Below are positions 26,796 through 27,992 of a DNA stretch of 46,764 nt, piece after piece; positions within the stretch are counted from its first letter, which is position 1, and the number at the start of each line of letters is the position of its first letter. The translations under genes were made by a program, and so were the position numbers. The notes beneath the pieces are model-generated. The model did not search any database. It had not been told where the DNA came from and saw only the letters and a program-made list of their open reading frames with translations. The stretch covers positions 1 through 46,764 of the forward strand of contig JADIMD010000124.1 of assembly GCA_017695015.1 (NCBI GenBank), given 5' to 3'. The DNA comes from Candidatus Cryptobacteroides faecigallinarum. Its GTDB lineage: Bacteria; Bacteroidota; Bacteroidia; Bacteroidales; UBA932.

Positions 26796-26897
26796 AGCCT
26801 TATTGTTTTGATGATCCTTGATTTTATGACTAATGTAACAATATCTTCCAATCCCGTCAGAAATCAAATCGGAAGATTCTCTGTAAATGGCAGGCAA

Positions 26898-27350
26898 TTA
26901 AAGTGCTGCGACAATCTTACGGACATTCTGCAACTTTTCCATAAACGATTTATTCCGTTTGGCTGTAAGCATATTGTATCTTGCCTGCATCTGCAACAGT
27001 GATTCTGCTGGAATATCCAATGCGGCCTCTACAAGCAGTACAAGTTCTGTATTTACCTGTCTTTTACCGTTCAGTACTTCATTAAGTAATGTGTATGAAA
27101 TCCCCATTTCTGCAGCCAGCTGTTTCTGGGAGATTCCTCTATACTCCAGTTCATCTTTCAGCACTTCCCCAGGATGTGTCAGTCGGAAAGGCTCAAGATT
27201 ATTTGCTATCATATTCGGGTCTGTCCCCATTGATGGATTCTCGATAAGGTCCTTACGGAATTGGGCAAGGTCAGACAGAAAAGACTTGTATTTCTTTGCA
27301 AGCCGCTTCATGTTCTTTACGAATACGGCTGAATATAAAATATCTACCAT
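26898..27350 (-). CDS. Chimeric protein: RelE/ParE-like toxin N-terminus (about 44 aa) fused to a HigA-family antitoxin
   Basis: MVDILYSAVFVKNMKRLAKKYKSFLSDLAQFRKDLIENPSMGT resembles RelE/ParE N-termini; DPNMIANNLEPFRLTHPGEVLKDELEYRGISQKQLAAEMGIS is a HigA-type XRE HTH. Confidence 0.8.
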   Translation of the reverse strand: MVDILYSAVFVKNMKRLAKKYKSFLSDLAQFRKDLIENPSMGTDPNMIANNLEPFRLTHPGEVLKDELEYRGISQKQLAAEMGISYTLLNEVLNGKRQVNTELVLLVEAALDIPAESLLQMQARYNMLTAKRNKSFMEKLQNVRKIVAAL

Positions 27351-27589
27351 TATTCAACTTCGTATTCCTTTAACAAATCTTCAAGACGAGGCAATTCCTT
27401 TCCTGTTTTCTGCGCTTCAAGAACTTCTGTATAGGCTTCTCTTATGTCCTGCAGGATTTCCTCTTTCTCCGACTTGGCCGTTTTCGTCCGGCTCGTCTGG
27501 ACAACAGAAACCCCTTTCAACTGTCCCAACACTTTCCGCAGACTTGGAATAATGTCCGGATTTTCTATGTTCAATATCATCTGTGTCAT
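27350..27589 (-). CDS. Antitoxin component of a RelE/ParE-type module
   Basis: 79 aa MTQMILNIENPDIIPSLRKVLGQLKGVSVVQ..., stop/start overlap TAATG with the downstream toxin remnant. Confidence 0.7.
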   Translation of the reverse strand: MTQMILNIENPDIIPSLRKVLGQLKGVSVVQTSRTKTAKSEKEEILQDIREAYTEVLEAQKTGKELPRLEDLLKEYEVE

Positions 27590-27616: not shown

Positions 27617-27624
27617 CAAATATA
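27617..27624 (-). promoter_or_regulatory. Candidate -7 box of the TA locus
   Basis: Minus strand TATATTTG (plus-strand caaatata), no clear -33 box. Confidence 0.45.
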
Positions 27625-27913: not shown

Positions 27914-27920
27914 CCATGGA

Positions 27921-27992
27921 GCGGAAAACGAGACTCGAACTCGCGACCCCAACCTTGGCAAGGTTGTGCTCTACCAACTGAGCTATTTCCGC
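27921..27992 (-). tRNA. tRNA-Gly (GCC)
   Basis: Minus strand GCGGAAATAGCTCAGTTGGTAGAGCACAACCTTGCCAAGGTTGGGGTCGCGAGTTCGAGTCTCGTTTTCCGC folds to a cloverleaf with GCC anticodon; CCA not encoded. Confidence 0.95.

What the first reader, a model, noticed from the sequence alone, without database searches (positions are those of the whole stretch)
26898..27589. Collapsed toxin-antitoxin locus: intact antitoxin followed by a RelE/ParE N-terminus fused in frame to a HigA antitoxin
Read on the minus strand, a 79-aa antitoxin-like protein overlaps (TAATG) a 150-aa ORF. The first 44 or so residues of that ORF look like the beginning of a RelE/ParE toxin (VDILYSAVFVKNMKRLAKKYKSFLSDLAQFRKDLIENPSMGT). The remainder is a near full-length HigA-family antitoxin (DPNMIANNLEPFRLTHPGEVLKDELEYRGISQKQLAAEMGIS...). 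The simplest explanation is one deletion between two adjacent modules that removed the toxin-1 C-terminus and HigB. It would leave two antitoxin domains under one promoter and no catalytic toxin. The locus could now act as an anti-addiction element, an autoregulator, or a new DNA-binding protein with a toxin-derived dimerisation or antitoxin-docking head.
Basis: partly seen in the sequence, partly recalled or inferred. Interest (0 to 1): 0.75.

Follow-up and report, generated by a model that had tools for sequence, protein, structure and literature searches.

The report
Deletion-made toxin stub fused to antitoxin
Two neighbouring bacterial poison-antidote gene pairs appear to have been joined by a small deletion that destroyed both poisons and left one intact antidote gene plus a second antidote carrying a harmless stub of the first poison; this is a real rearrangement, and similar poison-losing, antidote-keeping losses occur in related gut bacteria.

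Summary
On the minus strand a 79-aa antitoxin-like ORF (27350-27589) overlaps by ATG/TAA a 150-aa ORF (26898-27350). That ORF is 43 residues of a RelE/HigB2-type toxin followed in frame by a near-complete HigA antitoxin. Intact relatives of both halves exist in the same genus. L142 carries the antitoxin plus a complete 111-aa toxin, 94% identical in DNA up to the junction and no further. L144 and L146 carry complete HigBA, about 90% identical in DNA from the junction onward. The junction (27227-27218) is a 7-10 bp microhomology between the two genes, so one deletion between two modules is the best account. Adjacency of the two modules was never seen directly. No other genome searched has this exact fusion, but independent HigB deletions that spare HigA were found, two of them also in-frame toxin-stub::HigA fusions. 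The deletion removed both catalytic parts, HigB, and the conserved HigA operator, so autoregulation through that operator is unlikely. Most likely this is a decayed toxin-antitoxin locus expressing one or two residual antitoxins, possibly with anti-addiction activity. The origin is well supported; function is untested.

The parts
27617..27624 (-). Promoter-like TATATTTG (Bacteroidetes -7 type), shared with intact module 1 in L142
   Evidence: Direct sequence; conserved in L142. Promoter type is from general knowledge, not tested.
27350..27589 (-). AT1, 79-aa putative antitoxin of module 1, apparently intact
   Evidence: 97.5% aa identical to the ORF directly upstream of the intact RelE-type toxin in L142; same pairing in L143, L194, L197, L198
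26898..27350 (-). 150-aa chimeric ORF (toxin-1 stub :: HigA)
27222..27350 (-). Toxin-1 stub, residues 1-43 (start of a RelE/HigB2-type toxin)
   Evidence: 95.5% identical to the start of the L142 toxin, which is Pfam RelE PF06296 and HigB2-like
27218..27227 (-). Junction GGGACAGACC, microhomology between toxin-1 gene (L142 GGGAACAGACC) and higA 5' end (L144/L146 GGGACAGACC)
26898..27221 (-). HigA antitoxin domain, residues 44-150, lacking only the usual first 8 or so residues
   Evidence: NCBIfam TIGR02607; 97% aa identical to HigA of L144; Foldseek best hits HigA structures
26849..26897 (-). higA 3' flank with palindromic, terminator-like element shared with intact higBA loci
   Evidence: DNA alignment runs to 26849 in L144, L145, L033, L146, L032

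Best explanation
The locus is a collapsed pair of type II toxin-antitoxin modules. Shown: an AT1-RelE-type toxin gene was joined in frame, at a 7-10 bp microhomology, to the 5' end of a higA gene; the toxin's catalytic two-thirds, the whole of HigB and the HigA operator are missing. Inferred: both modules lay side by side and a short-homology deletion (for example replication slippage) fused them. The locus now makes, from the module-1 promoter, AT1 and a HigA protein with a 43-residue inert toxin stub (or HigA restarted at the internal ATG). It is a non-toxic remnant. Its HigA part is probably folded and may still neutralise HigB toxins that arrive on mobile DNA (passive anti-addiction), without the original autoregulation.
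For: Window DNA is 94% identical to intact module 1 in L142 up to 27218, and about 90% identical to intact higBA loci from 27227 onward. The microhomology junction is seen by comparing window, L142 and L144/L146. The intact toxin is RelE-type; catalytic residues of relatives lie beyond the retained part (PMC9098466). The HigA domain passes the family cut-off, is modelled with pLDDT about 90-95 and matches HigA structures. HigA dN/dS to L038 is 0.017/0.351, with 5 silent and 2 replacement window-unique changes. HigB and intact toxin 1 are absent from the genome assembly, with positive controls for HigB. The HigA operator is present upstream of higB in all the closest loci and absent from the window. 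Parallel antitoxin-sparing HigB deletions: L073, L137, L145, L033.
Against: No genome shows the two intact modules adjacent. The host MAG is 84% complete, so absence of HigB or operators is not final. Selection statistics cover a branch that began before the fusion. One replacement, P to L before THPGE, hits a position invariant in the close set. Expression and neutralising activity are untested.
Confidence: 0.75

Rival explanations
1. Plain pseudogene: the locus is decaying and neither antitoxin does anything; the open frame is a recent accident.
For: Toxin-antitoxin decay is common here: 38 of 105 HigA loci show no single full-length HigB match; L204 has module 1 with an in-frame stop in AT1 and a truncated toxin; L148 has both HigB and HigA truncated. 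A conserved proline in the window HigA is changed.
Against: Both ORFs are fully open. Window-unique changes in HigA are mostly silent (5:2).
Confidence: 0.4
2. Selected anti-addiction element: HigA (and AT1) are kept because they neutralise related toxins on incoming mobile DNA.
For: Close higBA modules are scattered and multi-copy in the genus (G332 has several), so matching toxins circulate. Repeated deletions remove HigB and keep HigA. The principle is known (PMC7354431, PMC7192599).
Against: No functional data; the review literature says this use of orphan antitoxins is not shown to be common (PMC7354431).
Confidence: 0.35
3. New DNA-binding regulator with a toxin-derived dimerisation or docking head.
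For: HTH domain is intact and modelled well; the stub is predicted as a helical hairpin.
Against: Stub pLDDT is about 54-71 and the linker is below 50. No ATTCACN6GTGAAT operator in the genome; the looser pattern gives 3 sites against 1 in the control, two of them inside coding sequence.
Confidence: 0.08
4. Assembly chimera in the metagenome-assembled genome.
For: Host is a MAG of 125 contigs; higA is a repeat that breaks a contig in G150.
Against: Overlap at the junction is only 7-10 bp, and the result is in frame. The same kind of junction at the same higA site is seen in L073, L145 and L148.
Confidence: 0.06

Closest known systems
HigB-HigA single-gene fusions of the RelE/ParE superfamily (10 + 17 prokaryotic cases, PMC11980606)
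   Same: Toxin sequence at the N-terminus fused in frame to HigA
   Different: Those are listed as fusions of a BECR-fold toxin domain to an antitoxin domain; here only 43 residues of a toxin from another module remain, with no catalytic part
Orphan antitoxins (Klebsiella survey, PMC7192599) and anti-addiction antitoxins (Erwinia CcdA, cited in PMC7354431)
   Same: Antitoxin kept after loss of its toxin
   Different: Here two antitoxins sit in one apparent transcription unit and one carries a foreign toxin stub
HigBA of Proteus vulgaris and HigBA2 of Vibrio cholerae (solved structures)
   Same: HigA fold (4mct, 6cf1); the intact toxin-1 relative is HigB2-like (5ja8)
   Different: No functional toxin at this locus and no HigA operator upstream

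Membership tests
HigA family antitoxin | Passes TIGR02607 cut-off over HTH and C-terminal region | tested here: met
   54 bits vs 47.7, residues 58-132
HigA family antitoxin | Encoded directly after a cognate HigB gene | tested here: not met
   No HigB upstream, none in the genome assembly
HigA family antitoxin | Neutralises HigB | not testable with these tools
   Needs expression test
RelE/HigB2 toxin | Full BECR fold with catalytic C-terminal strands | tested here: not met
   Only residues 1-43 of 111 are kept; catalytic residues of relatives lie later
HigB-HigA fused toxin-antitoxin | Complete toxin and antitoxin domains in one frame | tested here: not met
   Toxin domain incomplete and from another module
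Functional type II toxin-antitoxin module | Complete toxin plus antitoxin in one operon | tested here: not met
   No complete toxin at the locus
Orphan antitoxin / anti-addiction element | Antitoxin without toxin that cross-neutralises a related toxin | tested here: inconclusive
   Orphan state met; neutralisation not testable
HigA autoregulator | Palindromic operator at its own promoter | tested here: not met
   TTCACN5-7GTGAA is upstream of higB in close intact loci; none in the window

The most novel reading that the evidence does not exclude
In this clade higBA loci are repeatedly converted by short-homology deletions, ending in the same stretch of about 12 bp at the start of higA, into toxin-stub::HigA proteins that are selected as toxin-free anti-addiction proteins. 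The window case recruits a stub and promoter from an unrelated module.
Probability: 0.12. Interest if true: 0.6.

Novelty: new variant of a known kind. Interest (0 to 1): 0.38.

Why it matters
It gives a sequence-resolved example of how addiction modules are disarmed in natural gut bacteria: the toxins go, the antitoxins stay. The parallel cases (L073, L137, L145) make it possible to test whether antitoxins left behind are kept by selection as protection against incoming modules, or are just slower to decay.

Tried and rejected
Profile search of the 43-residue stub alone found nothing, so its identity rests on the intact homologue. Phage and plasmid collections gave only HigA-part matches, none covering 80% of the query. 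A first protein alignment misplaced the toxin stubs and was not used for modelling. Synteny around bcp in the relatives examined did not show the ancestral locus; one hint is sdaA, which follows AT1-Tox1 in G284 and follows HigA, with bcp next, in G150. PADLOC matches were generic helix-turn-helix matches and were not followed. Literature search for microhomology deletions in toxin-antitoxin loci gave nothing directly relevant.

Full report
Observation. The minus-strand ORFs are exactly as described. AT1 is 79 aa at 27350-27589. The second ORF is 150 aa at 26898-27350, and the two overlap as TAATG. The host is a metagenome-assembled genome of 2.08 Mb, 125 contigs, 84% complete. Records of close relatives with public titles name uncultured Bacteroidales and Candidatus Cryptobacteroides.

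What the two halves are. The HigA part passes the NCBIfam HigA cut-off. The stub has no profile match of its own. A genus-wide search of 400 genomes found an intact homologue of the first module in L142 (G332:C15): AT1 97.5% identical, followed by a 111-aa toxin whose first 44 residues are 95.5% identical to the stub. That toxin passes the Pfam RelE cut-off and its best solved relatives are HigB-2 toxins. Complete HigBA modules with HigA 93-97% identical to the window are in L144, L146, L032 and others; their HigB passes the Pfam HigB-like cut-off.

The junction. Window DNA matches L142 at 94% up to position 27218 and then stops. It matches higBA loci from about 27227 onward at about 90%, through the end of higA and about 50 bp beyond. 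The sequences are: window AATGGGGACAGACCCGAATATG; L142 toxin gene GCAATGGGAACAGACCTCGG; L144 and L146 higA TTAAAGGGACAGACCCGAATATG. The shared word is ACAGACC, or GGGACAGACC if the window's own toxin allele had the base seen at the junction. This is the signature of a short-homology deletion. Measured against the intact relatives, it removed toxin-1 residues 44-111, everything between the modules, the higB promoter and operator, HigB, and the first 8 or so codons of higA.

What was lost. Catalytic residues of RelE-type toxins lie in the later strands (RelE K54, R61, R81; Y82 in V. cholerae HigB2; PMC9098466), so the stub cannot be a catalytic toxin. No HigB and no further copy of toxin 1 is found in the genome. 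A control search with a HigB-HigA query found HigB in G353, G332 and G284 but only the HigA part in G000. A palindrome TTCAC-N6-GTGAA lies about 55 bp upstream of higB in all the closest higB-start upstream regions tested (HigB identity 82% or more), and variants occur in some distant ones. It is absent from the window, and the 18-bp form is absent from the genome. The looser form occurs 3 times against 1 in the reversed control; two of the three lie in coding sequence.

Parallel cases. Among 105 distinct HigA loci at 50% identity or more, 67 have a single full-length HigB match upstream and 38 do not. Some of the 38 are contig ends, frameshifts or diverged HigB, so 38 is an upper bound for loss. 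Clear deletions are: L073, HigB residues 1-55 fused in frame to HigA at an 8-bp GGATAAAC overlap; L137, about 13-16 HigB residues fused in frame to HigA; L145, the HigB start joined to higA codon 9 or so, a stop, then HigA from its internal ATG; L148, HigB fragment joined out of frame to a truncated HigA; L033, only the last 17 HigB residues left. In the window, L073, L145 and L148 the right-hand breakpoints fall within about 12 bp of each other. Module 1 decays too: L204 has a stop in AT1 and a truncated toxin. The exact window fusion was not found in 400 genus genomes, in the GTDB contig scan, or in phages or plasmids.

Was the ancestor two adjacent modules? Not seen. None of the toxin-1 relatives found in 16 genomes has HigBA within about 1.5 kb, apart from the window itself. 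A hint: sdaA follows AT1-toxin 1 in G284 and follows HigA in G150, where bcp comes next. In the window the chimera is followed by bcp. This fits a shared neighbourhood but does not prove it.

Function. AlphaFold2 gives pLDDT about 90-95 for the HigA part and 54-71 for most of the stub, with a disordered linker. Foldseek returns HigA structures. HigA against L038 has dN 0.017 and dS 0.351; window-unique changes are 5 silent and 2 replacement, one of them P to L at a position invariant among close relatives. That branch began before the fusion, so this is weak evidence for selection after it. I infer a non-toxic remnant with a probably folded HigA that may neutralise HigB toxins, which are present and multi-copy in relatives such as G332. 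Orphan antitoxins and fused toxin-antitoxin genes are both known (PMC7192599, PMC7354431, PMC11980606). Whether the antitoxins are kept by selection remains open.

Verdict. Real, well explained in origin, a new variant of a known kind (toxin-losing, antitoxin-keeping decay), with modest interest raised by the recurrence.

Noticed in passing
L073:2851-3330: In-frame fusion of HigB residues 1-55 to HigA with an 8-bp microhomology; promoter and HigA operator retained.
   Followed up: partly
L137:2948-3300: About 13-16 residues of a HigB start fused in frame to HigA in a Mediterranea MAG.
   Followed up: partly
L145:9592-9935 (minus strand; G295:C8): HigB start codon joined to higA codon 9 or so, then a stop; HigA likely starts at the internal ATG. 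HigA 96% identical to the window.
   Followed up: partly
L003, L038, L040, L041, L043, L044, L046, L060, L058, L014 upstream of higB: Conserved TTCAC-N5-7-GTGAA palindrome about 48-55 bp upstream of higB, a likely HigA operator of this clade.
   Followed up: partly
26849-26897, L144:5770-5816: Palindromic terminator-like element after higA that also occurs elsewhere near other genes in L144.
   Followed up: no
27917-27992: tRNA-Gly(gcc) just upstream of the locus; intact module 1 in L142 also lies downstream of a tRNA-Gly (ccc), about 500 bp away.
   Followed up: no
L204:1300-1941: Module 1 in G143 with an in-frame stop in AT1 and a toxin lacking its first 29 residues.
   Followed up: yes
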